From: Acanthopleura granulata
Taxonomy: Eukaryota > Mollusca > Polyplacophora > Chitonida > Chitonidae
Direction: 5' to 3'
Length of the DNA: 64,000 bases
Assembly (NCBI GenBank): GCA_016165875.1
Contig: JABBOT010000002.1
Coordinates: 27,418,265-27,482,264, forward strand
Made by a program: the position numbers and the translations under genes. The notes below the pieces were generated by a model, which did no database searches, was not told the DNA's origin, and saw only the letters and a list, made by a program, of their open reading frames with translations. Below, piece by piece: positions 21,305 through 62,607 of the stretch. Position 1 is the first letter of the stretch. Each line of letters begins with the position of its first letter.

Positions 21305-21469
21305 ATGAGATCGTTAGTTGTCGCGATCGTTTTCTTTACTGTGGTTGCAGTTGCTACCGCAGGGAGAGAAAAACGAAAAAGTTTTGGTGCTGATAAAGTG
21401 AATCATGGCGACCACCCGCATCACCATAAGCGACTCCGCAAACAAGATTTTGACGGACATAAACCAGTG
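21305..21469 (+). CDS. Testican exon 1: signal peptide and His-rich N-terminus
   Basis: I chose the ATG at 21305 over the in-frame one at 21263 because it puts the hydrophobic core LVVAIVFFTVVAVA directly after MRS, giving a typical signal peptide with a likely cut after ATA (residues 17-19). The mature start is basic and contains HGDHPHHHK. Donor GTG|GTAAGT, phase 0, 55 codons. Confidence 0.75.
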
Positions 21470-24400: not shown

Positions 24401-27400
24401 GTCCATGTTGGAATTAGCCATTGCCACGATACCCAGCTAACCATTGCCACGATACCCAGCTAACCATTGCCACGATACCCAGCTAGCCATTGCCACGATA
24501 CCCAGCTAGCCATTGCCACGATACCCAGCTAACCATTGCCACGATACCCAGCTAACCATTGCCACGATACCCAGCTAGCTATTGCCAGCTAACCATTGCC
24601 ACGATACCCAGCTAACCATTGCCACGATACCCAGCTAACCATTGCCACGATACCCAGCTAACCATTGCCACGATACCCAGCTAGCTATTGCCACGATACC
24701 CAGCTAACCATTGCCACGATACCCAGCTAACCATTGCCACGATACCCAGTTAACCGTTGCCACGATACCCAGCTAACCATTGCCACGATACCCAGCTAAC
24801 CATTGCCACGATACCCAGTTAACCGTTGCCACGATACCCAGCTAACCATTGCCACGATACCCAGCTACCCACACATGGACTGATACATAAACCCTTTCAA
24901 AACTCAAAACGAGAGAGTGAAATGTACAGTGAATAAACTGAAGCACAACTTGGAAGACTAGTGGCCACAGCCATTTTTGAAGTCACCAGCAGTTTGAAGG
25001 CCAGAGCTTGTGGTGATAATATATGAGTGGTGTACCCTTTTGTCCATTTTCAACAAAATTATGGCCGGTTTTGTTCTGTTGTGTGTACTGTGTTTTGACT
25101 TTGTGGCTCAAATCAGTAGGAGACCTGTAGTGTGGTAGCAGTACTGACAGAAATCTTGTTCCCCATGCAGTTACAGATGTTAGCTAATGTGTAACGATTG
25201 AATTAAACTGGTTTGAAAATCACAAGCAAACCACGGCCTAAATATCAGCAGTGCATGAACTAACACATTCATGTAGCAGCACATACATTACTTGTGCATA
25301 GTGGGCATGTGAGTGAAGGTCTCCAGTCTCATGAAGCCCAGCAGGTATTCATGGTCTATCATTGACTGCTTGGGGTCGACTTCATTTCCTTGTTTGTGTC
25401 CTGATCTTTGTTAGGTGACAGGTCAGGTAGTGTAAATACCTGTGGGATGGCTGCAATGTGAGTCATCAGAACACCGTCTGTCCATTACCTGGCCAGTGGG
25501 GGTCGGAGAAGGGAGACCTACTGTCCCTGTGACCTCTATCAACATCTCCGGTGTCCTAAACTAGAGTGGCCGCTCAGCACAGTGAGTGTGGGATTTGGGG
25601 GAGGGAGGGCGGGCTAGATCTGGCGCTGATGAGTTTTGTTGTACAAGTACAAGAGTTTCATGAAATTGCCAAGAAAGTGGGAATCTGCATACATGTAGGT
25701 GTATTTCTGCAGTCTGATGGAGTCATACTGTGAACGCTGCACGTGTGGATTACATGCTGTATTTAATGGCAAGACCTCACCAACCTTTGTGTGCAAGAGC
25801 ATTGAGAACATGGTTAGGAGCGTTTCTGAAAGGATCAAGAGGAGTTGTGGGTTGTCAAACAGGATGAAGTAGGGGGTGTTACATCGGGCGCAATCAGACC
25901 TGTAATGTCAACACACCCTGATACACCCGCTTGTTTCTGTGTTTGAGTTAGGGGCTTACTTTCCCAGCTGAAGACTCTGTGGCAGCATTGATCGAGAAGA
26001 GGAATTCTGTTTCACAAAACCAGGTTCTTCCTCCCTGCCACATCCTAGACAAACATCAACAGCAGCTTACATTCCGAACAGCCTTGTATAGGCAACTCCA
26101 GTGTAAACGTTCGGTCTTCAATTCAGAACTTCATTTATTAAACATAATTTTTAATTATGACTTATGTGAAACACCTTGCAGGACAACACTTGTTCAGTTT
26201 AAGGTCACCCTGAAGCTGCATTTGTCATCTGGCATGAGTGTTTAAGAAATTGCATGCAAGGACCTTGTACAAACCATACATTTTGTACATGTTGACAATG
26301 TACTGATGGTATTCATATATATTCACACCCTTTAATAAGTTGAGGTCTCATAATATGGAAGATACCTTGGAATTGAAGATGTCTGTTTTAAAAATCCGGC
26401 CGTAAGTACCTGCAGAAAGGCATACACAGGTGTAGGATGTGCCAGTGTCTTGCCGAAAGATGACGAATTAAGATGTGTTGGCCTGAGGCAGGGCAGGATG
26501 AGCATACAGGTCCATGTGACTGTGGAGATGTTGTGAGATAACTGATGAGGGTCCCAGACCACTACCTTAGTCTCTCAGGAGGAACCCACACACAGCAACA
26601 CCTGGCTAATTGACCAGCCTTGTCCACCCCTCACCAGGTTACTGGATAACTACATTACTGGTATTACCTTCAACCTCCATTAGTGATAGAATAGATCTTG
26701 TTCGTGTTCAAACGTCAGAGAAGTCCCAATATCTTTTGATAACTTTTTTGATGGTTGTACATTGCATACATTTTCAAATGTACAACATTGTCATCACTGG
26801 TCTGTATTCATGCCAAAAAGTGTATTTCTTGGCATCATATCCTGACACCCCCTGTAGCCCCAGTGAGCATAGCAGATGAAAACAACTGCTACCATCTCTG
26901 CAAACATGCAATATCCGTTGCCTTTTTTCAGTAAGTTTACATTTTGAATACAAGATAACAGTCAGCGTGTTAAAATGTGTCCGTGTGTATCTGTATGTGA
27001 ATTTATCTAGTACACAAATACATGTCTCTGGATGTTGTACCTATCTGACGGACAGCTGTGCTAATGTTGTATCAAGGGACAAATACGTATGTACACAGAC
27101 TGTACAACTGTCTGTGTTGTATCAAGAGGCAAATACATGTTTCATAACATTTCATTTCCATAGCACAGTTGTCTTAATTATGTGCATTTTAGAAGCAGAA
27201 ACATGCATTAAGAAGCTCTTGATAAGACACATATAAACACATCTGCAAAATCCGTAGTATATAAAGAAGTAAATTCAACCGTAAACGTAGTGAATATTTT
27301 CACGTGACCAAACATTGTACTCAGCGAGTAACATCGTAGCATTGAGCGGGATTCTTCCAACTGCACATATTGAAGGCAGGATAGGTTAGTACAGCACATA

Positions 27401-30400
27401 CTGTCTGCCTGAATGAGAAGACATATGATGTCACCAACAGGGGTGCGTTCCTTTTGTAGGTCAACATGTTAAATACCACTCACCTCCAAAGTGAGAGGGT
27501 GGCGTTCACCAGGAAACAGGGTAAAACTCTGTAAGAAACAAGCGGGCTTGTAATGAATTTGTTTCGATGAGAGGCCTTAATTTTAGCCTTTTTAGTACAT
27601 GTAACTCACATCCTAATGCCATGACATTAATAAGAAAAAACATTTTGTATCATGACCTTCCAATCTGAAGGTCACGACCCACATAATTGCATACTGGATA
27701 AATGGAAATTCCACCTAAATGCAAAGAATTCCCCAGCACAAAACCAAATTCAGTATTCAGCCTCATTGTTTTTACATCATATATTGGCAAATCGTTTATA
27801 TGAAAAACTCTGTTAATGGCAAGGCTTTGAGCCCTGTAGTTTTGGTTAATCTGCAGCTAATCACATAAAATCACATTCTGAAAGACCCATCTGTGTATGT
27901 GAACCTTCTTGATGGGACATCATGTTGGTTGTCACGGGCATCAGCCTGGCTGGAGTTACATGTGTGAATGAATGAATGAACTGCTGTGACTGGGATAAAC
28001 TAATCAGAGTGTCATATAATGTTACATACCATGTCCCAGAGTCCGTGAAATTAAAGTTTCTGAGGCTACTTCTGAAAACTGTTAGCTCAAGTTTATACAT
28101 GTAATTGCAATCTGTTTCGTAAGTCATTAAAATATTGTCATCAAAGTGGTATATTTTTTTACATCATTTAAGATGTGTGAAGTATATAAATACTTCTGTG
28201 TTTTAATATTTATGTGGTATAAGAAAAAATAATAAAAAAGTCACTGGCAGATGCAAAGTTCTAGTTACAAAGTTACATGTATGCTCAGTGTACAATACTT
28301 GTATTAATTACCAAACTGAAAAAGCATTTATGGCTTAATAGTTAATTTTGTATTCTCTTCAGCAGTTCGATTTGTTCATTTCCCTTGCCACCAAAAGCCC
28401 CTGTTATTTTTCAATGTGGAGAGAAAAGAATGACAAATCTCACTGTCTGGAATTGTGCAATAAATTTCAGTATGACTTAAGCTGATAATCAGAGTGATTT
28501 GGTGGCTTCTATCTTTAGATTATACATGTAGTTTCCAATTAACTGAATGTTTAGATTAAATGAAGATATTATTCCTAATATTCAGGGGAAGTTTTCATGA
28601 AGCCTTGCATTTTCCAGATTATTAATTTCCTCTTCCAGAGAAGCTTATTCTACATGATCTATTGGCACTGGTAATTTATTATTCTCTTGTAGGGACCATG
28701 AGTTTGGTACAGACCTTTCAGCTTAACCTGAAAGGCTGCATATATTGCTCGCATTCATGTTTGTTAGGCTTTCCTTTCACCTGGACACGAACATTGTGTG
28801 TTGCTACCTGTTGTTGCTGGGGGAGCTCTGATGGCGTGAACTACAAGTACAAAATATTTCTTACCAGTGACTCATCTCTCTCTTTCAGACAAATGCCTGA
28901 CTGATACATTGCTCTGAAGGTGAAGGGACAGTTTGGGTTGAATACAATAGTAAAGCTCAATCCATTGTCTTCCAAAAACAGTGCTTGTTCTTGCAAAGAT
29001 ACTTGTAATCTATAGCTATGATGAAACTTTTTAGTTGTTTTAAACAAAACTAATGTTTTTTGCCATGCCTTGTATGTGTGAATTGTTCTCTTTCTTTAGG
29101 CCTGGTAACATGTAGAACCTGCTTGAGAGTGGGGTGGGGGAGAGGAGGACGGAGAAGAGGGGGTGGGCATGCTTAAAATAGCTGAGTTTTTATCACTCAG
29201 TTGTGATCAGAATGATCCATCTTTCAGTGGTGAAGTTATTGAAGTACATATAGTACATACATTAAGTATCATGTAATTAATGTAAAATGTTGAAATTAAT
29301 TACCTATGATTTGATGCGTTTTAGGGTGAGAGTCCCCACACTGTGTACAAGGATGAGTGGCTGAAAATGACCCGATACACCAAAACCAAAAGTAAGTTTC
29401 TTACAGGACATATATTTCACAGGTCTTTGAAACGTGTATTTAAAGACATTACCTACAAAATCCTAAATGGACTTAAGATAAATTTTGAATGCTTATCTGG
29501 AAGTGGAGATCAGTTCTGCTGCCAGAATTAATTGGCTTAGTTAATTAAAATATAAATGTAAGTTTTGAGTCGTAAAATTTGATACATGTTGGAAAATGCC
29601 GGATAGGATCATGTATTGCTGTTTACTGTCGTTCAATTCTACCTAAGTGTTGTCATTACGTGCCACAGATCTGTCAGGCTGTAGGCTTCGATAATTCACA
29701 GTTAGCCCCCCATCACGTTTTTGCTATGTCACAAATTTTGTACATCAATGGCCTCATCTACATGTTGTCAACTTTTGTGCGTCATGCATTACACATTCCT
29801 GGGAGGCAACTTTTGTACCATGTGCCTTATGGTTACATCTGTAGCCAATGCGCAACTTAGGGGCAAGTTTTGTGCCATATGCCTTATGGTTACATCTGTA
29901 GCCAATCCGCAACTTTGGAGCAACTTTTATACCTTGTGCCTTATGGTTATATCTGTAGTCAGTCCACAACTTTGGGGCAACATTTATATCTTGTGTTTTA
30001 TGGTTATATCTGTAGCCAGTGCACAACTTTGGTGCAACTTTTGTACCATATGCCTTATGGTTATATCTGTAGCCAGTCTGCAACTTTGGAGCAACTTTTG
30101 TACCTTGTGCTTTATGGTTATATCTGTAGCCAGTCTGCAGCTTTGGAGCAACTTTTGTACCTTGTGCTTTATGGTTATATCTGTAGCCAATCCACAACTC
30201 TGGGGCAACTTTTTTCCCTTGTACTTTATGGTTATGTCTGTAGCCAATGCACAACTTTGGGGCAACTTTTGTACCGTATGCCTTATGGTTGTATCTGTAG
30301 CCATTCTGCAAATTTGGAGCAACTTTTGTACTCTGTGCCTTATGGTTTTATCTGTAGCCAATCTGCAAATTTGGAGCAACTTTTGTACCTTGTGCTTTAT

Positions 30401-33400
30401 GGTTATATCTGTAGCTAATCTGCGACTATGGAGCAACTTTTTACCTTGTGCTTTATGGTTATATCTGTAGCTAATCCGCGACTATGGAGCAACTTTTGTA
30501 CCTTGTGCTTTATGGTTATATCCGTAGCTAATCCGCGACTATGGAGCAACTTTTACACCCTGTGTTTTATGGTTATGTCTGTAGCCAGTGCACAGCTTTG
30601 GGCCATCAGGTATCACACATTTCAGATTCACAGTATTGTACATCATGCCATACACTAATAGCTCTCTCTGATTTACCCCTGTTATATGCCATGCCACATG
30701 TGATTTGCTGATTTACAGGTACAGTATTCAGTTGTTTACAAAGCATGTAGCAGTGATATATCTTACATATATTTTTGGTTATAGGCACAGCCTGTAAACG
30801 GAAGTGTGGTAAACACCATATCTGTCTGGTGGATCAGACCACTGGGGAATCAGACTGTTTCAGCATTCACAGTTTTAGAGAAGGGTAAGTCTTGATGCTT
30901 TTTACAAGTAATTTTTATTGTTTTAACCTTTCAGAAATGATTTTTGTGTCAAGGAAAAAAAGGCATTGTGGACATTGTGGTGTTTTTCAAGGCTCCAATA
31001 GGTGTCCTGCATCTATTATCCTCATCACTGTCATGTGTGTGAAACAAGTAACACACTAGATCTCAATAAGAGAAAGGCATAAATACACAAATTTACATCT
31101 TAAGGCTTAAAACACTGACTTTCATGAAGATAATATCACATCTTCATTGATGAGATGTGTTGAATTCTCACTCTCTATGCTAATTAAATATCACTGGATC
31201 AGAGTAGTGGATGATGTAAACAAGTTATCACTCCAGGGCCTAGGCCATCCTCAACTTGGAGCTACATGCTAGGTCATTAACAGAGGTTTCATCCTAATTG
31301 ATGCCAGGTCATGCATAGTGGGTTCAGTGGGCACATTAATGAGAAATGGAACACTTGTGCTTGACTGATACTAGAGTTTGTGCTTTGTTGTTGAAATAGC
31401 TGTACAGCCTTCTTCCGCTCCAGTCTTGCCCATCATAGGCAGGTGTAGATGTGTGGCCATCGGCCCTGGAGCATAAAATGTATCGGCCACAGCAGACGCT
31501 CGCACATGACGCATTGGGTCAAAATGGAAAGGCAAACAGGTGCAGTGCTAACAGCGCAATGCAGGCTGCGTGTAACAGTAGGCTAGACGTCCAGTAGCGA
31601 TTCCATGTGAGAAAACCTCACTGGCTATTGAACTGTTTGAGCTCTTTGCAAACACCTCGTGTAGAGAAGGAACACAGACAAATACAAGCCTTTATATGGA
31701 GGATTATGATGCGGTAGATTTTTTCTACACATCTGACATGTTTACAGATTGATCAGGCACAAGCTTTGTTTTTTGTTTTATATCATGTAGACTAATACCA
31801 GCCTGATGCTCCGACCTTGTCACCTGACCTGAAAGGCTGATCATCCACAGGCTGTTTTCTCAAATAACTTCGAAGGTGTTGCCTAATGTTCAAATAGGCA
31901 TATTGTTTAATAACAGAAACACAAGTTAATATCACAAAAGGGTCATTCTGTTCCATTTTGGGTTATGTTCATAAATGAAACGTTCTTTCCTCTATATGCT
32001 AATGTTAATGGACCGATGTGAAATAAATCTTATATCACACAGATACTATTGTTTGTATTCCACAGTATGGCGAGTAGCCAGGATTTAGGTACATGTACTG
32101 CTCAAATGCGGGATCCACCCGTCTAAATGCTGAAATGTTCCCCACAAGTGTGGATGTAAAGCAGTGGCGTGCAGTAGGCTGCTATATATTCATGATCATC
32201 TCCATCAGTTTTACATAAAGTCATCCTGTAACATAGATAAAGGGAAAAACAGAAAAGTTTTTCCCAGATCAGTATGAAACGAGCAACGAGGTACTCCAAA
32301 ATCTTGCATTCCATGGAGTTTGGAAGACATTTCAACTGGAAGCTTATGATACAAGCTATGACACAAGCAGAAGCTGTATATTTGTCATGGTATGCTTAGC
32401 TGTTTAACATCACACACAAATTGGCTTTGTTTGTTAAATGTATTGCCTAAAGCTAGAGGAATGTTGCTCTTTCATCACTTACATTCTTAGATTGTTACAT
32501 CAACCACCTTTCCATTAATTATGACGTTTATTTTATTTTTTTTTGGAATTTGCCCTCTCCTGTCTAGTGCAAAAGGCACACGTAATTTCCCTTAACATTT
32601 GTAAGTGCGTTGGAATTGTCTTGTTGGTGTTGGTTACACCACAGAGTGTACTGCATTATAATAAGTGCATGTAGACAGGAATGTTTCGGGGTTATCTTGT
32701 ATATCAAGTACATGTATAAGTGAATATAATTTGAGTAAATGGCACACCTTAGTTTGTCAGATTCAGTACAGCTTTATCTTTTGTTGGTATCTGTATCAGA
32801 ATGTGAGTGTCAGACCAGGTGTGAGAATGGCGGGTCAGAAGGTCAGTCCCAGGTGGCATATTCCCAGTGTCCTTGTCAAAACAGGCAAATTTGAGGGGAA
32901 GCTCAGTTGTAGAGCAGTGTATCAGAGAGATAATTGTATGCTACAGATGTGTGTTGGAAGCTAATTTTTAGTGCCTGTACATTTTTATACCAGTAACAAG
33001 GAGTCTGGCTATTAAGATTGAGTCATGCACAACTTGACTAAGAGCTATTACATGGGCTTATGTGGTAATTACAGCTAATCTAGATCTCCATCAGACAAAC
33101 CCTAATTCTGTAGCTGGAATGTTTACCGATCCCTGATAAAACCCTGTATGCCCCACGTCCCGAGTCCTCTCTGTCAGGTCAGTGATCGGGCATTTGGAAC
33201 AGGAGTTGCTGTGATTTTCCCCTCAGTGAGACCCATGATATTTTGCACCAGCATACCCATAGACCCCCATGTTGTGGCCATGATACCCTCAGCACCCAGG
33301 AGTAGGCTGTGGGTTAGTGGCTAAAGGACATGCCATTCATTCTCCAGGACACAATGTTCTCGTTCAAGACCGGACTTGAACAGAGAATCGGGCGTGAAAT

Positions 33401-36400
33401 TCATGTAAGCAGAAATCACGCATTACAACGAAATTTATGGGTTGTCAGATAGACTCGTGTTCACATGTCAGTCATATCATTTTGAAGTAAATTCACGTTG
33501 AGTAGCAGGATTTCACATTACATGATTCCCCTGCTCTCAGTGCTTGTGATGCCTTAGTCACAGTAAGCATTGGAAGACATTTTGGGAGACATTCTGTGAG
33601 CAGCCCTCTGTTCATTATGGTGTGCAGATCTCTACATCATATGTTTGAAAGTTTGTCATGTCCTTGGTTTACCACAGGCACTCTGATTTCTTCTACCAAT
33701 GAAACTTGCTACCATCATATACTTAAAAATGTGTTTGAGTCTGGAATTAAGCAGTTCAGTAAATAAATACTTTTCCTCAGATATATATTTAGAAAGCTTT
33801 TCTTTGAACCAATGCTAACTTTGATATCTGATGAGAAAAGCCTCCCTCCTGCCATGTACATTCTAGACAGTTCCCTCGAACTCAGATTCTGTAAACAGTT
33901 CCCTCAAACTCAAATTCTGTAAACAGTTCCCTCAAACTCAAATTCTGTAGACAGTTCCCTCAAACTCAAATTCTGTAAACAGTTCCCTCAAGCTCAAATT
34001 CTGTAGACAGTTCCGTCACACTCAAATCCTGTAGACAACCGCTCAAGCTCAAATTCTTTAGACTGTTCCCTCATGCTCAAATTCTGTAGACATTTTCCAC
34101 CAGCCTGTTTTCAGATCCTGTAGATCTGTACATTAACTTGTATAAACATTTAGTAGACTATACAGTGTTTTCCACCCCGTGGTGTTGTGACGATATCCAT
34201 ATCGCCCTACATCAATACTAGCACTTTGTCCTGCCAACAGGTATGTTGACGCTGGAGGCTTACTGAGAATCCCTCTGTCCATTATCCAGTATCCACATGT
34301 TATACCTCCTCCCGCCACCCTGAGTGAAGCTGAAGACATTAAGACCATCAGCCAGATGGGCTCATATTGGTTCTGACGTTTTCCCTGGCTCTGTTCTTTA
34401 ATCAATGGCCCATCAGTTAGATATGTCTGCAGCTATCCTTTAGTGTTATTGACCAGATGGTATGATCAGCTGTGTAGACTGACTAGCATCTTCTGACCCA
34501 AGAGTAATGTGGCCAAAATTACTGGCTGTTTCCATGTTCTCATCAGCTCATGGTGTCCATTGATTTGTTGATATTGATAACGGATCTGGGCAAGAGGGGG
34601 CCTCCAGACAGCCTAACTCTGAGCTTATTGATTCCTGGGGGTCAACCATACCTGCACTTGTGCTGCTCAGACTTAATCAATCCTAAACTAAGTGGTCTTA
34701 AAAACTAGGCTGTGTCTGTAGTTTACCAAGTTGTAACCAAATCTGATGGGCATCGATTTATTGCCAGTAGTTTCTTTGCTTAAAGTGAAAGATAGCTCAT
34801 GTTCTATGTTAAGTTTGCCAAAAATGTTGCACAATATTATGTTTATTTCAGTAAAGTGTTTTTTCTAACAGCTACTACAACAGCGAAAACTGATATTTGA
34901 CAGTGATCCATCAACCAGCATGAAAACCAGCCATTCTGTCTATGTTGTGACGCAATTGTTCTGCGTGTGGAAGACTCTTCCCCCCTGTTGTAAGCTGCTA
35001 AGGTGTTTTGTTGGCTTAAGTATATATGTGAATTTACAACATGAAGTGATCAAGAAACTTACTCCCACCACAACACAATGGTCTGGAAATACTTTGCAGT
35101 GTTGATCACTATTGTACTTGTTATAATAGGGGAGTTTTGAGATCGAACTCTTTAATCTCTCAAAAGGTAAAAAAAATCCTACTGTACCATGTGACCTGTA
35201 TTTCTGATTACATATACTATGACACAGGCATCTAAGAAAAGTTTCAAAAAGGGTTATGTAAACTAGACATACAATAGGGAAAATTGGGGAACTGAAATTT
35301 TTTTTTAAATTAAGAAGCTGCTGATTGAAGGAGAGGTCATTTGTACCTCCCTAACATGGCAAGACTGGTGATCGATAAATTAAAATCAACAAAATTGCCT
35401 GATATTTTTGACAAGTCACATGACACAGCTGAACTCTTTTTACCTTCTACGAAAAAAGAGTTTGAACTCGAAATTCCCCTATTAAAACATATAACATTCA
35501 GTGTGCTGTCCCTGTGTTATAACATGTTACATTGACAGACAACGTCACAGCTTATGAACAGCTGATATCTCCTAGCTCTCTGACTTGTCAGTCCCTCATA
35601 AGCTTGAAAGCATGGGCACCTTCAGATTCCCAGTTGTCAGCACAATAGTCCACACTTTGAACGAAGATAATTCAGCAATGAATTCGTACAATATCAAACA
35701 GGTTTTGACATTCAAGAGAAAAATTTAGAATCTTTTGAATGAACAATACCTCAGTCATGAGCTGTCTTTTACTTCCAAGAGCACCATTTCATGTGAAAGC
35801 CTGTGGAACATTTGCACATACATTATCTTAATTATGTACATAGCTTTGATGGAGCCTGGAAAAGAGCAACTGATATCTTTATGTTTTGATGTTGACCATC
35901 AGTGATAGCTTTGCTGTGATTTAATCAGCCTGGTAATTGGTGAATAATTTTGGCAACCACTTCACTCATGGATTTCTGGTATTTCAGCTACAGCTGGGTA
36001 TCATCGATGCATTCAAAGGCTTTAACATAAAGGTTCAGATCTGAAGTTCTGAAGTTCTGATTTGTGAATAATTTTGGTGGACATCTTTAAAATACTGCTC
36101 ATATTTTAACACCACTAACTTGCTAAAATTCTGATTATACTCAGTCATAACCAGGGTGATTAAGATACTCGTAATGTATTTGTTTGTTGAATGACAGGTA
36201 GCTGGGTAACACTTTGAATGACCCTGTGTCTAATGGTCTTCCACAGCTTCAGACACATGTACATAGTTCAATGGTTTGCTATGAGTAGAGGTAACGTGTC
36301 TTTGTGGCTTACATAAGGCTGCATCATTGTTGTGTACACAGATTTGTATCCATGCACCATGCACAGCTCTCCTTCAAACAAGATGACTTCTTGGTCGTAT

Positions 36401-39400
36401 GTGTTATATCCCTGGTGCCTGTGAGACAGATTTGACCTTGCATACCAGACAGTTATTTTTGTAATGACGGTCATTAAGTACCAGTAATTGTTAACTTGTT
36501 ACATTCATAATTCATGCTCAAGGTCATTCGAAATTGCTTCATCAAAATACAGAACTACTTCCATATTTAATTGAACTGATGTAGTGCCTGTTGAAAATAA
36601 ATCATATCTTCCAAACAGTGTGAATGGCATGTCTCTAGTTCATATAGAAGTCATTCTACAGAAAAGGAATGTATACATGATATCATCATTGCCAAATTTG
36701 GGAAGCCAATTTTTGGAACACTCAACATTGCATTAACTTTGGCTTGGGTCTTGAGCAATACAAGGGCACAAATAAAACCATTCAAATGAATGGTTCTTTT
36801 GAACAAATGAAAGACAGAGATGCCTTGTTAAGGTTTGGATAGGGTAGGCTGTTTCTGAGCTGCAAAGTTTATGATTTTTTGAAATATCTTAGTCCAGCTA
36901 GTTGCAGATTTAATGTGGCATCAGGCCCCAGAATCACAAGTTGTTATTTATTTATTACAGAAACTTTTCTTAAATCTTCATGACAAAAATGAAAACTAGA
37001 TTTTAGGTTCAAAACTAAGGGCAGGAATAATACCACAAGTTAAGATTTGAGTAAAACTTAAATCTGAGACAGCTTCGTGATACTGGGGCCAGTACAAAAT
37101 TGCAGAATAGATTTGTAGTGAATTAGCTTTTCACAATGGACACTTTTTGAGTACTCGTCAATAACTCTTACTTTTCTTGCATGATTGTAAGATTATTAAT
37201 TTTGTTGTATTCCAGGCTGTGCATGTTTTGCAGTGGCTTTATCTTTTATATGTAATTTAAATTCTGTGTCTTATTCTGAGACCATTGTACATGTACACCT
37301 TCTTATCTCATGAAGGCGTGATGCTTCCTCTACAGTGTGACATGTATTTCTTTACCCTGGGTGTTAATGCAGTTTTGATCCTCACATCGTGGTCCCCAGA
37401 GAGATTAACAGTGTGATTTCACAGTTTGTTCACACATCTAGCCAAAAGATTGTGAACATTTGGCCCTACCCCTCCCAACACTGCTGTGAGCCCAGCTTAT
37501 CATGCCCTAATCAGTGATCATAGGCCTCTGGGTCAGTCCTCAACTCTCAGGAGGTCCGTCAGCGATTTACAGTTCTGGGCACTTGTAGCCCAACGATGTT
37601 TTGTAACTATTCATTAACTCTGTTTGACTAGGCGTAGTCATTTTCAGTGTGTGTTATTAACTTCTCTCTCAGACCTTGCACAACTTTATATGCAAAGGTA
37701 ATCAGGAGAAGATCATATGCCTGTGCCATAGGTATGGCAATCAAAGTAATGCAAGGAGGGTATTTCACCGTTGATGCCCTTTGCACATATTTACTGCCGT
37801 AAGTTTGAACACTCATGGCATAGCCTTTTGCGTCCTGGAATCAGTGTTAGGATAAATGTCAAGGGTGATATCTCTAAAAGTACTGCATGTATTCAGTTCA
37901 GTTTTGCATGTATGTTAAATAAGTACAACACGCTGTGTGCATATTAATTTCTGTAAAATACCAAATTCATAGCTTCTTGTGTAGTAGAATCTATGAAAAT
38001 GTGAAATATTTTTTCACAAACTGTTGCTTGTGTTGAGTTCAATTTTACATGCATGTAATATTGTAAAGCACAATAATACAGGGAGAATTGTCCATCGTTA
38101 CTCTACATGTATGTTAATTCCAGACATTGATGTTTTTTTTCATATCGCATGGTAAATGTATATGTACTTTGTGTATTGATATGAAGTTGTACATTCATGT
38201 GTTTCCTACACATTCATTCTCCAATAATAATCACAATGTGATTTCTTCATCGGTCATAAACTTCTTCTGTCCATAAACCGCACTGTTAAATGCATCTGAA
38301 TAAAAAACTAAAAAACATATAAATACTCTTTGACAGGAGATATAATGTGTAATATTTATTACCGATCTTTCACAAATTACTGTTGGGTTTAATGACAGAT
38401 GCTCAGGATGTTCCCTGTATCACACTGAATGACACTTGGGTGAACTGGGTCTGGTTCGTCTTGACCCATGGCATTGGTCATGGTACGTAACTTCTATAGC
38501 CTTGATGATATGTCTCCCTGCTCTCGCTGTTCATGGGGGCTGGATAACAATCAGCAGTTTACGAGGTGTGTTCCTTTAAGACCTCTTCGTCTTCCGTGGA
38601 TATGACACCAAAGGTCGGCGGAATGTACAAGCTACTCTGGTTTGCAATATTCATGAAACTTACCGCTATTATGGAAGTCAAAAATTCTTGAACATGTTGT
38701 TAAAACAATGATCAGATACATTAAGTAAATAATAAATGTTGGGTGAGGTATTTTTCTTTCAGTTCATAGTCCATGACCATGACCATGTCAGTGAAATATC
38801 TCCACAACAGCCAGGGATAATTATTCAAATTTATTTTTAAACTTTATATAATAAGGCTCTTAACAGCAGTCAGCTGCACCTGGTAGTCAGTATTTTCACA
38901 TTCTAATAAGATGGAGGTTGCTAATAGGTGGTATATATTGCTTTGACTATTCAAGTTTTTACTTAATCAGTTGGAATGTCTCTGAATATTGTTTTCTAGT
39001 CCTGTATCTGAAGCCTGTAAAGGTGTGCAAGGATTAGGGTTTGATATGTACAGAGCGACGGAACGTCGTATACTGTAAAGTGCAACTCATTACAACTTGG
39101 TTTGGCATCTTTCTTCACGAGTGACATCCCACTCAAAACACTGCCAGAACTTGCCACATGACAAATCCCATTTTTTTGTGAGTAGAAAATTTGGCAGTAG
39201 CAAATTGTTTTTGTGATTTTCTGTTTTATTATTATTTTTTTGTTTTTTTTTTTACCAGAAATAGTCTGGAAGGTTTGGTGTGAAGATATTCAGCTGGAAA
39301 TGCAGAGAGGTTTTAGGAGTTGGCCATCTGGGTTACTTCTGCAGGCAAATCCAATTGTCCATTGATTTTCTAGAATGTTTCAAATTACTGTTTGGTTGAA

Positions 39401-42400
39401 ATCCGACACAAAAGCAGTTCTCCAGTCACAACGCTGATCTACACGATCAACATAACCAAGTGGATCTTGTGTCAAGAGAAAGCGGTATCATTGTCACAGA
39501 ATGAGATCTCAGGAATACATGGTTATCAGATCGTTAGTGGAAATCGAGGGATTCTTCCTAGTGTAATAAGAAGTTATAGCTTTCAATGCATTTGCCAAAA
39601 TTGTTACTTGTATTAATAATAACCTGTACATTTCATGAATTTGTGTGTAGAATTTTTATAATACAGACATTGCACACCATTGTTAGAGAGTACAAAGGCA
39701 GTCCCTAGAGTTCTTGCTGATTCTAAAAGCCTACACTGATCAACATAGCATGTATATATCTGTATAGCATAACACTGCCCAGTAAGAAGTTATGTATGCC
39801 GGAGAACTGTTTGAATAGTATTGTTGTGGGTTGAAATATGCAGGGCATTTTTGTCTGTACAAGTAATTCCTTTATACATACAGTCCAGCTGTATGTATTA
39901 CAGTACAGTCCAGCTGTATGTATTAAGACATTTATGTATTTACAGTCCATCTTGCCTAAAACTCGTGACTTGTGGCTGTGGGCTCGAGTATTGTCGAGTA
40001 CACGTCACCTCGTCTCTCTGACATCAGGTCTATTCTCTGGGTTTATTCATGGCTTTGGCCCTCAGTGATTATACAGGTATTGGTAATGTGATATTGTGGG
40101 GTAGGAGGTTGTTTCAAGTGAGTGGGCACAAACCATCTGATCTGTGGAGTGGTGCCCTGTACAGGAGGCTAGGCTGTCATGGTTGTAAAGGAACACCCCG
40201 CAAGCGACTGGTCCCTTGTTAGAGATTGACAGGATGCATTCCCTAGTATTGCATCTAAGACAAAACTGACAACAACTGTTATATGTGAGAAATACATAGA
40301 TGTAGATGAAACTTTTACTGTGTATTGGTAGTGGAGAGTGAAGCCCTGGAATGAATGAACGAAACGAGGGTGAACTCCACATTGGCAGTATAGCCTCCAT
40401 AACTTGGTGAGAACGTGCTAGAGCCAGGACACAGCGTAGTTGCGGCTTTTGCTATGAAAGCGATAATATATGAAATCAGAACAAATAGGAAAATTCCTAA
40501 CAGATGAAATTGTGTTGCCAACATGTACTTACACTCTACCTGTTTGTAAGGACACTTGATGACCTCAGTAAATACCATCAAGACTACTGAATACTTCTAT
40601 TTTGATACAGCAGAGTTTTCATATTTTGCACCTTTCCTTGCCATTTGAAGTAACACTACTCCTTGCCAGTTTATGAAAGCATGGTGGTGAGCATGCATAT
40701 CAACAGGTGCTTCCACCGAAAGTTTAATGTGAGCAAGTAAAATGCACATGAAGTATAGGGCTGTGTGGTCAAGGAAGAAGTGAAATGTTATCAGTGATTG
40801 TTAAAGGTTTCAGTGTATGGGTGTGCCTTTACACCTGTAGTTCTGTGGAAATACCCCAGCCATTGTGTGCAAAGCTGGAAAGGAGATCAGTGCTGTCAGT
40901 CTCTAGAAGTAGAACAGGATGTGTCTAACCTTACATTCCAAGGTCATGTTCTATCCCGGTTGATTACTACTACCCGAATCCTGTCTAGCCTGCAGGAATG
41001 GGCCTACATGACAATAACCTAAGCACTGGGTCGGTGTCACTCATTAATATCAAGAAGTTTCTTATGTCCTTTTTCGCTGAAACCTGAAAATAAAAACGTG
41101 AACATCTTTGTTCATGGTATGAAGAGTATAATAGTATTCTACAAAGTGCCTTCATGATCAGCTTCTCTTTCCTCTCCACTGGCTGTAGCATAACAGAGTA
41201 AAGCTTGTGTAAGACGGCTTTTCTTCTCACAGTCACCCTTTTTGTGAGTGGCTCTGCCTTTTTGCCCTGAACAAAGCTGGCTGGTGTAATGGAGTGTTCT
41301 TGCTGTTTCCAATTTCAGCCTGATTTAAGCTGTAGGCTGTGAACCAGTGTTTAAGAGATGAAGCCCTGACTTGTCCAATCCTTCTCATCCATGTATCCTC
41401 AATACAGCGGGAGTCCACGTCCAGCTAAAGGATGAGATATGTTCAGCTAATGGCGGCCTTAATGACTTCACACGCACAAAGAACATCAACAGCATAGTAT
41501 TGATTCTGGAGTCTAGCTTCCATCAAAAAATGACCTCTGCCAAACTCAGTTTAGTCCTTGATGATTTTTTTCTGTCTTGATTTGCTTTTTCTCCCCATAG
41601 TCTCAGCTATTCAATAATATTTGCATATATATCTAATGATAATATATTATTTTCACTAACTGGCAGTGTTTCAGTATTTGTCAGTGTCTGTGTAATTTAC
41701 CCTAGGACATTTCAATCAAAATATATTTGACATCAAGAGTTACGTTGCCTAATAGTTTCCCTTGTCCTGCATTCTGCTAATGAGAGCTGAGAGCCAAGGG
41801 AGGTAAGCAGTGAATGTGTTCCTGTACATCACTGAGCATTTCAGAATGGACAGATATTGTAACGCTATTACATGGGCTTAGAGAGAAGGTATTACCCTTA
41901 ATAATGTAGTTTCTCGCAAAAAAAGTGCATTTTTATATACAGATTATGTCATAAAATATAATTTAGGCCTTTCTCAAACAAACTTCAGAACACCTTTCTA
42001 ATATCTACAGAACTCACAGAAAGGGGTAGCCAAGTAATCACATGGCGTTTCCATGGGAGAGAAAAGGTCCCATTGAACACTAATAGGGCAAACTTGGCAA
42101 CCCAGCATCCGGCTTTCACTCGACCAGTTCGGCTCTGCTTCTGCATTTTTCTCATTAGGTTGGGTGCCTTGCATCTGCTACAATTTACAACCCCTAATGC
42201 CCACTGTTAAGTCATAACAAACCTCGAGCATATTCTCTCTCTCTCAGTACACACCCGGGTTTGCCATGTTTGATAAAGCTGAGCATTATGGGAACAATAC
42301 TCACCCCTTCACCAGCTCGACCTTCGTAAAATGTATCCCAAGATTTACACTGTTATGGCCAGTTGTTCATTCTTTGGAGCAAAATCTAATTGATGGTGAT

Positions 42401-45400
42401 ATTTGATCCTCTTTAATAGACTCCGGAAGTATATCACATTTATTTGCAACAACAGCTGTGAAGGTTGATATTAAAAAGCTGAGCATAAGTTCCTAGGATA
42501 AAATTTCACGAGCCCTAGATCGGGATGCTCAGCTTCATCAAACATGGCAAACCCTGGTGCGTACCGAGATTTTCTGCCAATTTTGCTCGAGGTTTGTTAT
42601 GACTTAACAGTGGGCGTTAGGGGTCGGGTGAAAGCCAGACAGTAGGTCTGGTGGCCAGGTTTGCGCTATTAGTGTTCAATGGGACCTTCCCATGGCGTTG
42701 TAGAGTAGTAGAAACGCCATGTAATTAAGAATTGGGATGTGGTAAAATGTCCAGCTTAGTCATGGACTGAACTTTGTCATTTAGGGCATGTTCAAAGATC
42801 TGGAATGAGGCATGCCCCAGAGAAATCCACAACATTTATATCCCAAATTGACCATGAAGAGAATGGTTTGAATGGATTCGGTCTGCATTACCCAAATTGT
42901 TCAATCTATTTGGACAGATATTATCACTGCTGGAATCAGAATATTACCTTTCTCTCCCAGTTTTTTGAGAAAGTGAAGATTTGGATATGTTGGTCATTAG
43001 ATGGACGAACCAAAGGAGAAAAACAAAACTTTGTATTCCTGTTAAAATTACATGTGCTGAAAAACACAGATCAGGCGTCCCAAAAATTAGAAGAGTTAGG
43101 GTATTCATTTATGGTCACACTTTTTCATCTCAGGTTTTGACAGATATGACTCTTTTCTGCATTATCTCATTGCCTTTTACTTTTCTTACAGACGTCGATT
43201 GTTTCGAAATTTTCGGAATCATGATGTTAAGGGATTGAAACAGAGTATTGAGGATTATTCCAAGCACCATCAGAAGTCTGCAGGCAAACACAAGCACCAT
43301 CACAAACCACACAAGCATCACTATCAGCATGTAGAGCACCCTCAGCACAACAGAATCGACTCACCCGCCAAGGCCAAGAGGCAGCATGCTCCTGATGTGA
43401 ACCATGGACAACACAAGGACCATCCACAGCACAAGGACCACAAACAAAACAAGGACCATCCACAGCACAAGGACCACAAAGCAAAACAAGGACCATCCAC
43501 AGCACAAGGACCACAAGCAAAACAAGGACCATCCACAGCACAAGGACCACAAGCAAAACAAGGACCATCCACAGCACAAGGACCATAAACAAAACATGGA
43601 CCATGCCCAACACAAGGATCACGAGCAAAACAGGGACCATCCCCAGCACAAGCACCATGCAGAACACAAGCAAAAGGAGCATGAGAAGCACCCTGAACTC
43701 AAGCAACACTCTCAGAACCAGACACCAGGGATTGTTCACAACCACAGCGGGCCTCAGCAGAAATTGGAGGCTGTGGAGCTTCATGCTCACCTGCTGCCCA
43801 ATTCTATCCACGGCCACGTGAGTATTATGTTCCGAGGTCACAGAACTTCTGTGGCAGTGTCACTTCTCTTCCTCCTCATACATCAGCTGGGTTTCTATCT
43901 CTAACAAGCTATACGTACGATTTTAAAATCTTTCATCTTAGTACAACCTGACCTCACTTGGCATTCAAGAAGTGTAGGCAAAGTACTAGTTGGCCCAGTC
44001 ACACTGTATTTTGACTGGGCGAGTGTTCTGTCTTAGTGTTGCAGTGATGCATCACTGAAAATATATTAACAGTTGTGTCAAGCCTTGATATGACAGAAAT
44101 ATTGTTAAGAGTGATATTACACCCATAAGACCAGTAATTCCGTATAGAGTTTGAGAACACTTGTCTGAACACGCTGTATGAGTCCACACACTCTTTTTTT
44201 CGAGATTTTGGCATATGGAAATGATTTAATTTTAAAACTCTGTAAATATTTAGTAAATTTATATTATGTCTGTGTGGAAAAAGCCATGAATTGGTAAGCT
44301 AAAGTTGTCCCTTAATTTTCAGATTGTAGCAGCCAGTGAAGATGAGGCCCTCAAAGCACTGGAAGCTAAGGTGTCCATCCACAAGTCTGTACAGGTAAGA
44401 TTAAATCCCAAGGTAATTCATCATCCCACGGTCACTCTGCATCCCAAGGAGATAGTGATCTGTGGCTTATCCACATATAAACACCTTTGACTAATGTGAA
44501 ATAAGAAAAACAACAAAGCTTAGATCAAGTTGCCATATTTTTTTTATCCCCTGAAAGCAGCTCCCTCATTAATTACATCACATTGCTTGAAAAGGAGGGA
44601 CATGTAGCGATTGCTTTTTCCATCCATGCATCAGTCCGTCCGTTCTTCCGTCTCAGATCCTCAAACTCGCACAGTGTGTGCCTCATGACCTGAAGTTGTG
44701 CACTATCAGGTTATTTTTTTCACGTTTCGATATATTTTAAATGTTATCTGCCCTTGACCATATTTTTCAGATTTGTGCAGAGCGTATCTCAGCAGCTATT
44801 ATGCATAGGATTCTCAGACTCACACGAAGTATGCAAAATGACCTGTAGTTGTGCACTGTCAGGGTTTTTTTTCGCATTTCGATCTGCTTTAAGAGTTATC
44901 TTCCCTTGACCATATTTTTCAACTTTGTGCAGAGCATATTTCGGCAACTATTATGAATGGGCAAAATGACCTGAACTTGTGCATTGTCAGGTTATTTTTT
45001 CGCATTTCGATCTATTTTAGGAGTTATCTTCCCTTGTACATATTTCTCAAGTATCTGCAGAGCATATCTCTGCAACTATTAGGCACACAAAGTGTGCAAA
45101 ATGACCTGAAGTTGCTCTGTCTTGTCATTTTTTCACATTTCGATTTGTTTTAGAAGTTGTTTTCCCTTACACATGTTCAGATTTGTGCACAGACCCAGTT
45201 GCTCCCTTGACATTGTGTTCACCAACACGACCAGGGTGAAAAAGATAGTAACCTCTTCCTGCTATTTTTCTTGCCAAACATTTGTCCATGTCGTTATTGA
45301 ATCTGTACCTCTGTGAAGTAAGTCTTTTTTGTGGGGTGGGGGGGAGGGGAATTCTTTCATTTGCTCACGAGGGCACTCAGTTTCTTAAAGATATATTATT

Positions 45401-48400
45401 ACCGTGCAATTGCTGATTGTGCTACATTTATATTTTTCTGGAGGGGAGGAGAAACGTACAATTTGGCAATCTGTGATTGCTTTCTTGTTTTTTTTTTCAC
45501 TAAAGTTTAACAAGTGATATTGAAGAAGTCCACTTGGGTGCCATGTTAAAGAAATATATCCTTGGTGTTTTTCCCTCCAGAAAGCAGCGGTTAAGCGATT
45601 GATGAGACCAGTTCAAGGTCATCGCCTTGGAAAAACAGGGAAAAGTCACCTCAGAAATGACCATCATAAAGCTCACAAAGTTCCCCATCACAAACATCAT
45701 GGGAAGCACAGCCAGCCACACAAAGGTGCCAAACACCACGGTCAGTTGTTGTTGTTGTCACTTGTCAGTGGTTTTCAACAGTAGATGTTTCAATTCACAA
45801 GAACATACTGTTTAGTAACCCATTTTTTCATTGTCAGAGACTGTCTAAACTTTTAGGATTGAAAAACAATGTAACGTGGGAAATATCATTGAATTTTATA
45901 TATACATAGTTCATAAAGTGTATTGTAGGCATGTTGATTACAGTAATTCTTACTACATGTACTTTTCATAGTAATTTATCCAATTTTAATTTTAAAAAAC
46001 TCATAGGCTGTTATGTAATTGATGTTCTAGGGATTATTTCTTTATTGGTACTATATTGTTACAGTTTGTACCAAGGAGGAACTTGATGTGATGAGTAAAA
46101 GACTGACGGGCTGGTTTGCTCTTCTTCATGCGCGCAGAGAAGAGACCACCCATCATAAGATTCCGATCCACAAACATGATCGTGAGTTCCTCTTCAAAGT
46201 TTAGCTTCCTTTGAAAAACGTTTAGAAAGCATATATACTTCTTGGAAGTGGTCATAGCCAAGGGGCATATCTGTGACTTGCCAGTTGTCATCGTACAAGT
46301 GGAAACTTTTGAAGCATGGTGTTACACAACAACCAAATATAGTTCTTTCTTCCTTCGAAGCCCTCTAATTTGTAAGTAAGTGGAAAAGTAAAAATTATGA
46401 TGAGTAATTAAGTAAGGGTGGCACTGACCAATAGTGATTAACAAGCATATATGACACTCAGCCAGTAATGACTGAACAAGCACGTGGCATTCAGCCAGTA
46501 GTGACTGAACTGCAACCTGTGGCACTTTGCCAGTAATGATTGAACAAGCACATGTGTCACTCAGCTAGTAAAATACTGAACAAGCACATGTGATGCTGAC
46601 CAATAATGAGTGAAAAATATGTGACACATAGCCAGGAATGATCTAACAAGCACTTATTAAGAGTTGAGTTGGCTGTTAGAGTTCACTTTGTTAAAGGTGT
46701 CAACTGCGGCAGTTTATATCTGCCAGAGTATAATGCCACTTGACAGCTATTTACTCCTCTGTTTTAGCCCTTTCATATAGTACACATAATTGAAAGCATT
46801 TGAGTTAAGAATTGTTCAGATCCTTGCAATGACATCTGTCGTAACCCTTACTTTACAGATAAGTGTGACTGTCAGGAGACAGCCGTGTGGGCTCTTCACC
46901 AGTTTGACCTTAACGGAGACAATCACCTGAATCACACAGAAGTCAAACATCTGGAGACTAACCAGAATGAGCCCTGCCTGAAGCCCTTTATAGAATCCTG
47001 TGACCACAATCTGGACGCTCATCTCTCCAGGAAGGAATGGTGCTGCTGTTTTGCCAAAACACGTACGTGATCACAAATGTGCTTTCTGCGTAGGTCTGGT
47101 TTGGAAAACCATACATCGATACAGTTTTGGATATTGATTGTTTATTACCTGAATTACGTTGTATTGACATGGTCATCACAGTTAATTTGGTCTCCACAAG
47201 GACCCAGATTTGCTTGCATGTCATTATCTTAATCAAGAATAGCAACATGTGGATGGTCGTGGGTAACCCCCGGACTCTGCCTGGTTTCCTCCCACCATGA
47301 TGCTGGCTGTCGTCGTATAAGTGAAATATTCTTGAGTACGGCAGAAAACACCAATCAAGTAAATAAATAAATAATCAAGAATAAACTCCTTCGAAACAGC
47401 TACATACAGTATTAGAGATTTTGTCCAAATACACAGCAATTGCTTGTGGATACAACTTTTACGGTGGATTTCTAACACCATTACCAAGTCGTAATGCAGT
47501 GTGATAACCAACAACAAAAAGTAATGTGACTTAGTAACAGAGTTAAAATTCACATTAATTCATGATACTAATAATGAAGTTGTTACCAGAAAGCAATGTG
47601 TTACATATTTATTCACCAACCAACTTCAGTAATGTTTCTAGTGTAATTAAATTGTTTAACCGGCATCAACACTATGAATATTGCAGTCTCTAGCGGTCAC
47701 TATCCTTTTAATACTCGTTCATCCTGTTAACCAAACTTCACCCTTGCTGCCACGCTGGCTGTACGTGGGTAGGTCTTTCAGCAACCTGCAGATGCTCATG
47801 GACTTCTGCTCATATAAGTGAACTTTTCTTGAGGACAGTGTATAACATCAATCAGATAAATGAACAAATAAATATTGAAGTGAAAGACAGCGCATGTTCA
47901 AGTTTAAGTTTATGTCACAACTTATAAACAGCTGGTATCTCCTACCTCCCTGAGTAGTCAGTCTCTTAAAAGCATGGGCGCCTGATCCCCAGTCGGCAGC
48001 AACATACTCCAGACTTCAAGCAAAGATAATTCAGCAACAAATTCATATAAATTCAAAAGTTTTGGCATTCAAAAGAGAATTTTGTAATATTTTTAATGAA
48101 CAGTACCTCGCTCGTGAGCTGTCTTTTACCCTAACAAAACTTGACAATATTTTGTACATGTCTGAACAGTCATATTTCAATTTCAGAGCCACCATGTCTT
48201 CAAAGAAAACAAAGTCTTCAGCACCATCATTTATTAGGTAAGATATATCTAATCTCCCTGCCAGGGTGGACACTGAAGTGTATTATGTTGGTAGTTTAAG
48301 TTATTTCTTTGTATTGCTTGCCAACATTTTACCTGTATTTCTTCACACATAATAATAGATTACATTTCAGAGTGAAGATTCCTTAGGGCATTGGTATAGC

Positions 48401-61965: not shown

Positions 61966-62457
61966 CGACAGGACGGCTGAATCGGCCCCAGGCAATTAGG
62001 CAGCCGAGGGATACGCAGACTCTGTAATATGTCGGCGTTTCGTTTTTGTGGTCCTCTCATATATATATACTTTCTACAGCTAAATGTAAATATAAAGAGG
62101 ATCCGGGAAATTTTAACCCGAGTGGAAGATACTGTGCATCATTAGCGACTTTCTATATTGGGCTGGTGCCGTCGTTATTGATGCAAAGTGTACATGTATC
62201 TACCGAGGGGAGATATAGGCCTATTTATAACAGACAAGATAATATGACACGGTATATACGTGTCATGAGACTTATCAAGCCTTCACGGGATGTAAACCCA
62301 AAAGCTATACTAAAGGAAATTTATCCCTCCATAGTATGAGCTGACCACATGGATGCATCGAGAAAGATGGTTTAAGTACTTAAAGGCGGCGATTGCCAGG
62401 TCACATGATAATTTGAAGCGCATGACTGGTAGAGGGCGCTGTCATATATCAACAAGC

Positions 62458-62607
62458 ATGGCTGACATCTCACACGAAAAGTTAGGCGAATATGACGAAA
62501 ACGTCACAGAAAACGGCTCTTATGGGCTGTCAGAATCTGAGAGGCAATCAGAAGATAGTGTGGAGACATCACCGCAAAGCACAGAGCCCATATTTACAGA
62601 TGGTCAC
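62458..62607 (+). CDS. Possible first coding exon of a gene running off the right edge
   Basis: CAAGCATGGC gives a good start context. Fifty codons begin MADISHEKLGEYDENVTENG, are acidic and Ser-rich (SESERQSEDSVETSPQS), and end at a strong donor, GGTCAC|GTAAGA, in phase 0. The DNA just before it is richer in CG (GCGGCG, GGGCGC) than the surroundings, as near a promoter. No downstream exon is recognised in the last 1.4 kb, so the gene would continue outside the window. The product is unknown. Confidence 0.45.

What the first reader, a model, noticed from the sequence alone, without database searches (positions are those of the whole stretch)
30785..46181. Testican-like gene whose Kazal domain appears replaced by a long histidine-rich region
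Seen: exon 3 gives the four-cysteine half that normally precedes a Kazal domain, and its phase joins directly to exon 4. Exons 4-6 contain no cysteine and add roughly 280 His/Lys-rich residues before the EC domain begins. Known: testicans and SPARC have a follistatin/Kazal module at this position. Inference: the Kazal domain was lost or is only in an alternative exon, and a metal- or mineral-binding polybasic region took its place. This is an architecture I do not know from described SPARC-family proteins.
Basis: partly seen in the sequence, partly recalled or inferred. Interest (0 to 1): 0.78.

Follow-up and report, generated by a model that had tools for sequence, protein, structure and literature searches.

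The report
Testican-like gene lacking its Kazal domain
An animal gene for a calcium-binding matrix protein of the testican kind seems to have lost its usual Kazal module and to carry a long histidine-rich stretch in its place, but the assembled copy has a one-base frame break inside that stretch and no transcript was available to confirm it.

Summary
The gene is real and testican-like. The model gives a SPARC-type calcium-binding (EC) domain and then a thyroglobulin-1 (TY) domain, 38% identical over 180 columns to human SPOCK1 as I recall it. The genome searches show no second testican.

Exons 4-6 give 285 residues with no Cys, 62 His and 45 Lys. No Kazal turned up in the model, in genome scans with two Pfam Kazal families, with an HMM from 22 of this genome's own Kazals that passed a sensitivity test, or in a strict scan for missed exons. 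"Kazal absent, His-rich region present" is well supported at DNA level.

Exon 4 is not one open frame: one extra base in its 36-bp repeat (about 43478-43482) shifts the frame, and the literal reading stops at 43586-43588 after 242 residues. And exons 1-3 are joined only by splice phase and loose resemblance. The break may be an assembly error or a real defect. Absence of the follistatin domain has a precedent in C. elegans SMOC-1. New variant of a known kind; metal or heparan binding is inference.

The parts
21305..21469 (+). Exon 1: ATG, signal peptide MRSLVVAIVFFTVVAVATA, then a short basic His-rich stretch (DHPHHHKRLRKQDFDGHKPV); ends phase 0
   Evidence: sequence; donor GTG|gtaagt, phase; signal peptide judged by eye
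29325..29391 (+). Exon 2 (candidate): GESPHTVYKDEWLKMTRYTKTK, phase 0 to 1
   Evidence: one of 6 phase-fitting candidates between exons 1 and 3, ranked third of the 6 by my splice score; chosen over the first two for a loose resemblance to the human testican N-terminus as I recall it; low to medium confidence
30785..30884 (+). Exon 3: four-Cys hairpin TACKRKCGKHHICLVDQTTGESDCFSIHSFRE, phase 1 to 2
   Evidence: Cys spacing; HMM score not above noise (8.4 against 8.5 bits)
43192..43817 (+). Exon 4: His/Lys-rich exon with 36-bp tandem repeat (peptide KDHPQHKDHKQN)
   Evidence: acceptor ttacag|ACG and donor CAC|gtgagt; tandem array 43408-43657, 6.9 copies; one match, itself, in the genome
43478..43482 (+). 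One-base frame break in exon 4 (CACAAAGC where other copies have CACAAGC or CACAAAC); the frame from exon 3 then stops at 43586-43588
44323..44394 (+). Exon 5: IVAASEDEALKALEAKVSIHKSVQ, phase 0 to 0
45581..45740 (+). Exon 6: His/Lys-rich, ends KVPHHKHHGKHSQPHKGAKHH, phase 0 to 1
46065..46181 (+). Exon 7: start of the EC domain (VCTKEELDVMSKRLTGWFALLH...)
   Evidence: Pfam SPARC_Ca_bdg on the model, 63.8 bits over exons 7-8
46859..47062 (+). Exon 8: rest of the EC domain with two EF-hand loops (DLNGDNHLNHTE, DHNLDAHLSRKE)
   Evidence: genome search with the EC family, 50.1 bits; loops read by eye
48187..48237 (+). Exon 9: 51-nt exon QPPCLQRKQSLQHHHLLG, first Cys of the thyroglobulin region
   Evidence: first spotted by resemblance to the recalled human sequence; also returned, as 1 of 2 candidates, by the phase-preserving exon scan
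48708..48845 (+). Exon 10: thyroglobulin type-1 core (QC ... CWCV), phase 1 to 1
   Evidence: Pfam Thyroglobulin_1, 64 bits
30885..43191 (+). Intron 3: 12.3 kb with no recognisable Kazal exon
   Evidence: own-genome Kazal HMM, best + strand score 5.3 bits in 29392-46064; 4 phase-preserving exon candidates, none with a Kazal pattern

Best explanation
This is the one testican-type gene seen in this genome. It encodes a secreted matrix protein with a short N-terminal region, a four-Cys hairpin, a long disordered His/Lys-rich segment, an EF-hand EC domain and a thyroglobulin-1 domain. The Kazal half of the follistatin module has been lost from the gene, and the linker around it has grown through tandem duplication of a 36-bp unit. 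Shown: the EC and TY domains and their order, splice phases that chain in the model, absence of a recognisable Kazal in the window, and the His-rich exons. Inferred: EC and TY keep the usual calcium-stabilised core and a possible cysteine-protease or ligand-binding role. The His-rich segment works like the His-rich region of vertebrate histidine-rich glycoprotein, a flexible chain whose charge changes with Zn2+/Cu2+ or pH and so tunes binding to heparan sulfate or mineral surfaces. I treat the one-base break as most likely an error in a hard-to-assemble repeat, but that is not shown.
For: Pfam on the spliced model: SPARC_Ca_bdg 63.8 bits, Thyroglobulin_1 64 bits, no Kazal at E<=1. Genome EC-family search: 4 matches; by reading their frames the other three are a SMOC, a SPARC and an unrelated EF-hand protein. 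Own-genome search with the EC-TY protein: 12 matches, 4 of them in this locus, among these the three strongest (157.8, 106.1 and 77.9 bits); the best elsewhere has 51.7. Kazal absence: Kazal_2 90 matches and Kazal_1 82 matches genome-wide at E<=10, none in the window. HMM from 22 of the genome's Kazals: SMOC 44.9 and SPARC 20.0 bits as controls, 5.3 bits at best in 29392-46064 (+ strand), 7.7 at best in six frames of the whole window (7.9 with a wider HMM). Sensitivity: 27 of 27 Kazals score 22 bits or more and 27 of 27 of their 3' halves 11 bits or more. Phase-preserving exon scan: none in introns 4-6, 4 in intron 3 without a Kazal pattern. Even Cys counts: 4 in exons 1-3, 0 in 4-6, 14 in 7-10. 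Coding nature of the repeat: among 5 parsed units, 14 synonymous codon differences in the coding frame and 0 in either shifted frame. HRG analogy: passages of PMC5372734.
Against: Exon 4 does not read through as assembled. No transcript and no related species could be consulted: the protein database gave 30 word candidates, none at E<=0.001. Exons 1-3 are attached by phase and resemblance only, and exon 2 is not the best-scoring candidate. EC followed by TY is not confined to this locus: the SMOC locus on C10 has TY, EC, TY matches in that order on one strand, so order alone does not make a testican. The 5' halves of test Kazals score as low as 4.3 bits, so a lone 5' half could be missed. A weak Kazal-like peptide (VQSDGTSYTVKC, 39045-39158, 10.2 bits) lies in intron 3, though 4 of 100 random introns score as high. 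In the repeat 20 nonsynonymous codon differences also occur, and about 2 of some 7 units (across the break or not matching my pattern) were left out of the count. The tail exon with glycosaminoglycan sites was not found.
Confidence: 0.6

Rival explanations
1. The locus is a decaying or null allele: the one-base insertion is real, translation ends after 242 residues, and loss of the Kazal is part of the decay.
For: Literal translation of the joined exons stops at 43586-43588 after 242 residues. The genome search with exon 4 returned only exon 4 itself, so no intact copy is seen.
Against: EC and TY exons are open, with GT-AG splice sites and EF-hand and CWCV residues kept. The break is a single base in a run of A inside a tandem repeat, where consensus errors are plausible. 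The coding frame resumes at once and stays open for 112 codons to the exon 4 donor.
Confidence: 0.17
2. A Kazal is encoded but was missed: very divergent, cut by introns into small pieces, or placed outside the window by misassembly.
For: SPARC's own Kazal in this genome is already weak with Pfam models (22.1-22.2 bits). Intron 3 is 12.3 kb. A 10.2-bit fragment exists at 39045-39158. The genome scans scored only 100 and 88 candidates. Some 5' halves of Kazals score as low as 4.3 bits. The exon scan used strict splice rules with one control exon only.
Against: 27 of 27 test Kazals and 27 of 27 of their 3' halves score well above anything that the same HMM finds in the introns. The phase-aware scan finds no Cys-rich cassette with a Kazal pattern. 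The window has no N. The fragment has no Cys at the expected VCG position and random introns reach its score in 4 of 100.
Confidence: 0.13
3. Two neighbouring genes: exons 1-3 belong to a small secreted Cys protein, exons 4-10 to a separate EC-TY gene with its own start.
For: The first half has no significant family or structure match, its hairpin scores at noise, and the exon 3-4 gap is 12.3 kb.
Against: Exon 4 starts in phase 2 with a good acceptor and no Met before its His-rich part, so it needs an upstream coding exon. Exon 3 ends in the matching phase. Exon 1 already carries a DHPHHHK stretch like exons 4-6. A four-Cys hairpin is what precedes Kazal in testicans as I recall them.
Confidence: 0.1
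4. Exon 4 contains an internal intron inside the repeat, which restores the frame, so the protein is shorter but intact.
For: 79 GT-AG pairs inside exon 4 would restore the frame.
Against: The donors are poor (the better ones are GAT|gtgaac and CAT|gtagag, by eye) and the acceptors lie in purine-rich repeat without a pyrimidine tract. Much of such an intron would encode the same peptide repeat in phase with its upstream neighbour.
Confidence: 0.05

Closest known systems
Testicans / SPOCK1-3 of vertebrates (Drosophila Carrier of Wingless is named as a homologue of testican-2 in PMC7070448, passages; its domains were not checked)
   Same: EC domain directly followed by a TY domain, 38% identical to recalled human SPOCK1 over that part; a secreted N-terminal region plus four-Cys hairpin upstream in the model; EC-TY exon boundaries resemble those I recall for human SPOCK1
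   Different: No Kazal module found; 285-residue Cys-free His/Lys-rich segment in its place; two more Cys in the EC domain than in human testican as I recall it; acidic tail with glycosaminoglycan sites not found
C. elegans SMOC-1
   Same: A SPARC-family protein with TY and EC and without the follistatin-like domain (PMC10464977, passages)
   Different: Order TY then EC, so a SMOC and not a testican; the passages read mention no His-rich region
Histidine-rich glycoprotein (HRG), His-rich region
   Same: Tandem His-rich repeats with proline in a secreted protein; described there as sensing Zn2+ and pH and affecting ligand binding, with Zn2+ favouring heparin binding (PMC5372734, passages)
   Different: Unrelated domains; GHHPH-like repeats against KDHPQHKDHKQN here; an analogy in composition, not homology
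SPARC and SMOC of the same genome
   Same: EC domain family
   Different: Both have a Kazal nearby on the same contig (C2:10793853 for SPARC; C10:3480862 for SMOC); the SMOC locus has TY matches on both sides of its EC match

Membership tests
Testican (SPOCK) | Calcium-binding EC domain | tested here: met
   SPARC_Ca_bdg 63.8 bits, cut-off 22
Testican (SPOCK) | Thyroglobulin type-1 domain after the EC domain | tested here: met
   Thyroglobulin_1 64 bits, residues 510-567, after EC at 398-500; 38% identity to recalled human SPOCK1 over EC-TY. Order alone is not exclusive: the SMOC locus shows TY-EC-TY
Testican (SPOCK) | Follistatin-like domain with a Kazal module between N-terminal region and EC (definition in PMC7763218, passages) | tested here: not met
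   No Kazal in the model or window; only a four-Cys hairpin whose HMM score equals noise
Testican (SPOCK) | Unique N-terminal region | tested here: inconclusive
   Exons 1-2 modelled by phase; loose resemblance to the recalled human sequence only
Testican (SPOCK) | Acidic C-terminal tail with glycosaminoglycan sites | tested here: inconclusive
   No clear exon found after exon 10
SPARC/BM-40 family | FS-EC domain pair (PMC7763218, passages) | tested here: not met
   EC present, Kazal part of FS not found
SMOC | TY before EC | tested here: not met
   In the model TY follows EC; no TY match lies upstream of the EC exons in this locus
Works like the HRG His-rich region | Zn2+ or pH dependent ligand binding | not testable with these tools
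   Composition only: 62 His of 285

The most novel reading that the evidence does not exclude
A functional testican in which the Kazal module has been exchanged for a tandem-repeat, HRG-like metal- and pH-sensing polyelectrolyte, so that a Ca2+-stabilised EC-TY core is combined with a Zn/Cu- or mineral-responsive arm: convergent evolution of a His-rich region in a matrix protein unrelated to vertebrate HRG.
Probability: 0.3. Interest if true: 0.6.

Novelty: new variant of a known kind. Interest (0 to 1): 0.42.

Why it matters
If transcripts confirm it, this would be a natural deletion of the module that gives SPOCK proteins part of their name (SPARC, CWCV and Kazal-like domains), in a genome where no other testican was seen. 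It would show which testican functions do not need Kazal, and it offers a case of a His-rich, possibly metal-responsive arm gained by a matrix protein. As a domain rearrangement it extends a pattern already known in the family (C. elegans SMOC-1 has no FS domain), so it is of specialist rather than general surprise.

Tried and rejected
Tried without result: homologous-protein search with exons 7-10 (30 word candidates, none at E<=0.001); viral contigs (17 pattern matches, no relative); Rfam on the window (0 matches at gathering threshold); solved structures for exon 2 to the start of exon 4 (0 at E<=10); finding a mitochondrial contig to name the animal (4 of 87 contigs looked at, C84-C87, 57 kb to 6.2 Mb; COX1 family 0 matches).

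Considered and rejected: a Kazal relic at 39045-39158 (VQSDGTSYTVKC). It scores 10.2 bits only with an HMM of two recalled human SPOCK Kazals; 4 of 100 first-order Markov introns reach it; no Cys follows KC in its frame. The acidic frame at 62335-62619 as a C-terminal exon: no family match, and it lies beyond a 734-codon frame on the other strand.

Literature: I saw listings (titles and starts of abstracts) for (8 of 8 papers; 15 of 321; 15 of 25; 5 of 5; 5 of 5; 1 of 1; 0 found; 6 of 10); none of the listed titles is about a testican without Kazal. The library lacks most subscription journals, so this does not show absence from print. Passages read: PMC7763218, PMC7070448, PMC10464977, PMC5372734.
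Full report
Setting. The window is C2:27418265-27482264 (+) of an unnamed 606.5-Mb genome in 87 contigs, an animal by gene content. It has no N.

Gene model. Reading the sequence with splice sites and phases gives ten exons on the + strand: E1 21305-21469 (signal peptide), E2 29325-29391 (candidate; third of 6 by splice score, chosen for resemblance), E3 30785-30884, E4 43192-43817, E5 44323-44394, E6 45581-45740, E7 46065-46181, E8 46859-47062, E9 48187-48237, E10 48708-48845. The nine introns of the model are GT-AG. End phases of the ten exons are 0, 1, 2, 0, 0, 1, 1, 1, 1, 1 and every join fits, provided that one base of exon 4 is not counted (one search takes it off). A C-terminal exon was not found.

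What the protein is. Pfam on the model gives SPARC_Ca_bdg (63.8 bits) then Thyroglobulin_1 (64 bits) and no Kazal. EC followed by TY is the testican order. Exons 7-10 are 38% identical over 180 columns (125 bits) to the EC-TY part of human SPOCK1 as I recall it, against 43.9 and 33.1 bits for the EC pieces of this genome's SMOC and SPARC. In the whole genome the EC family matches 4 places. From their frames I read the other three as a SMOC (C10), a SPARC (C2:10796363) and an EF-hand protein. A search with the EC-TY protein returned 12 matches; 4 lie in this locus (157.8, 106.1, 77.9 and 28.5 bits) and 8 elsewhere (51.7 bits or less; not all examined). Three of the 8 lie on C10 in the order TY, EC, TY, so the SMOC locus also has a TY after an EC. 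With that caution, this looks like the only testican-type gene; the searches score a limited number of candidates. Both EF-hand loops have acidic residues at the usual positions (direct reading), though in human testican-2 only one site is active (abstract of PMC7763218, seen).

Is the Kazal really missing? (1) No Kazal in the model at E<=1. (2) Kazal_2 finds 90 and Kazal_1 82 matches in the genome at E<=10, including those beside SPARC and SMOC, and none in the window (100 and 88 candidates scored). (3) An HMM from 22 of the genome's own Kazals, SPARC and SMOC left out, finds SMOC's at 44.9 and SPARC's at 20.0 bits but nothing above 5.3 bits on the + strand of 29392-46064, and nothing above 7.7 in six frames of the whole window; a wider HMM with SPARC, SMOC and recalled human members gives 7.9 at best. 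Their 5' halves score 4.3 to 18.9, so a lone 5' half could be missed. (5) A scan for phase-preserving cassette exons gives none in introns 4-6 and 4 in intron 3, none with a Kazal pattern; as its single control it returns the 51-nt exon 9 among 2 candidates. Its splice rules are strict, so it could miss exons with unusual sites. (6) The remaining parts have even Cys counts: 4, 0 and 14. Against this, an HMM of two recalled human SPOCK Kazals gives 10.2 bits to VQSDGTSYTVKC at 39045-39158 in intron 3, the best score of that HMM in the window. Four of 100 random introns do as well, and the peptide lacks the Cys before SDG and those after KC. I treat it as chance, or at most a decayed relic.

The His-rich segment. 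Exons 4-6 give 285 residues with 62 His, 45 Lys, 11 Arg and no Cys. The core is a 36-bp tandem array, 43408-43657, about 6.9 copies, that encodes KDHPQHKDHKQN. Among 5 units that my pattern caught, codon differences are 14 synonymous and 20 not in the coding frame, against 0/31 and 0/27 in the shifted frames, so the array looks coding. A genome search with exon 4 returned exon 4 alone (that search skips simple repeats and very common words).

The frame break. The frame that enters exon 4 from exon 3 is open to a stop at 43586-43588; the frame that leaves toward exon 5 is open from 43401. Both encode the same repeat, and the change happens at CACAAAGC (about 43478-43482), one base longer than the neighbouring copies. 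Read literally, the protein ends after 242 residues, before EC and TY. Internal introns could restore the frame in 79 ways on paper, but with poor donors and purine-rich acceptors. An assembly error in a repeat is the simplest reading; a real null allele is not excluded.

How it may work. Shown: EC and TY sequences are intact. From papers: testicans are FS-EC-TY proteoglycans whose triplet forms a moderately compact core (PMC7763218, passages); Drosophila Cow, homologue of testican-2, binds Wingless (PMC7070448, passages); testicans can inhibit cathepsin L or act as its chaperone (PMC10464977, passages); the His-rich region of HRG senses Zn2+ and pH, and Zn2+ favours heparin binding (PMC5372734, passages). 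Inferred: without Kazal, the His-rich arm makes a flexible, metal- or pH-tunable link between N-terminus and EC-TY core.

Against known kinds. It fails one defining feature of testicans, the Kazal-containing FS domain, and of the SPARC family as defined by an FS-EC pair. I therefore call it testican-like or testican-derived, not a complete testican. Absence of FS is known for C. elegans SMOC-1. I saw no description of a testican with this change in the listings named under Tried and rejected.

Verdict. Observation partly confirmed, interpretation partly supported, new variant of a known kind, interest 0.42. The main gaps are transcripts, related species and the frame break.

Noticed in passing
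29806-30601: 57-bp minisatellite, 14 copies, between exons 2 and 3; several of its frames stay open for 165-254 codons on both strands, which could mislead gene finders.
   Followed up: partly
24418-24871: 23-bp tandem array, about 20 copies, in intron 1 of the model.
   Followed up: no
53183-55384 (minus strand): 734-codon open frame on the opposite strand with no Pfam match above cut-off; probably a separate gene with a long exon.
   Followed up: partly
46859-47062: The EC domain has KCDC and WCCC, two Cys more than human testican as I recall it; an extra disulfide is possible.
   Followed up: no
44821-45168: 128-bp repeat, 2.6 copies, in intron 5.
   Followed up: no
G000:C83:41287631-41329491: 9 Kazal_2 matches on one strand within 42 kb of another contig.
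   Followed up: no
G000:C10:3480862-3502647: SMOC locus with Kazal, TY, EC and TY matches in that order on the + strand, which recalls the FS plus alternating TY and EC layout described for Drosophila Pentagone.
   Followed up: no
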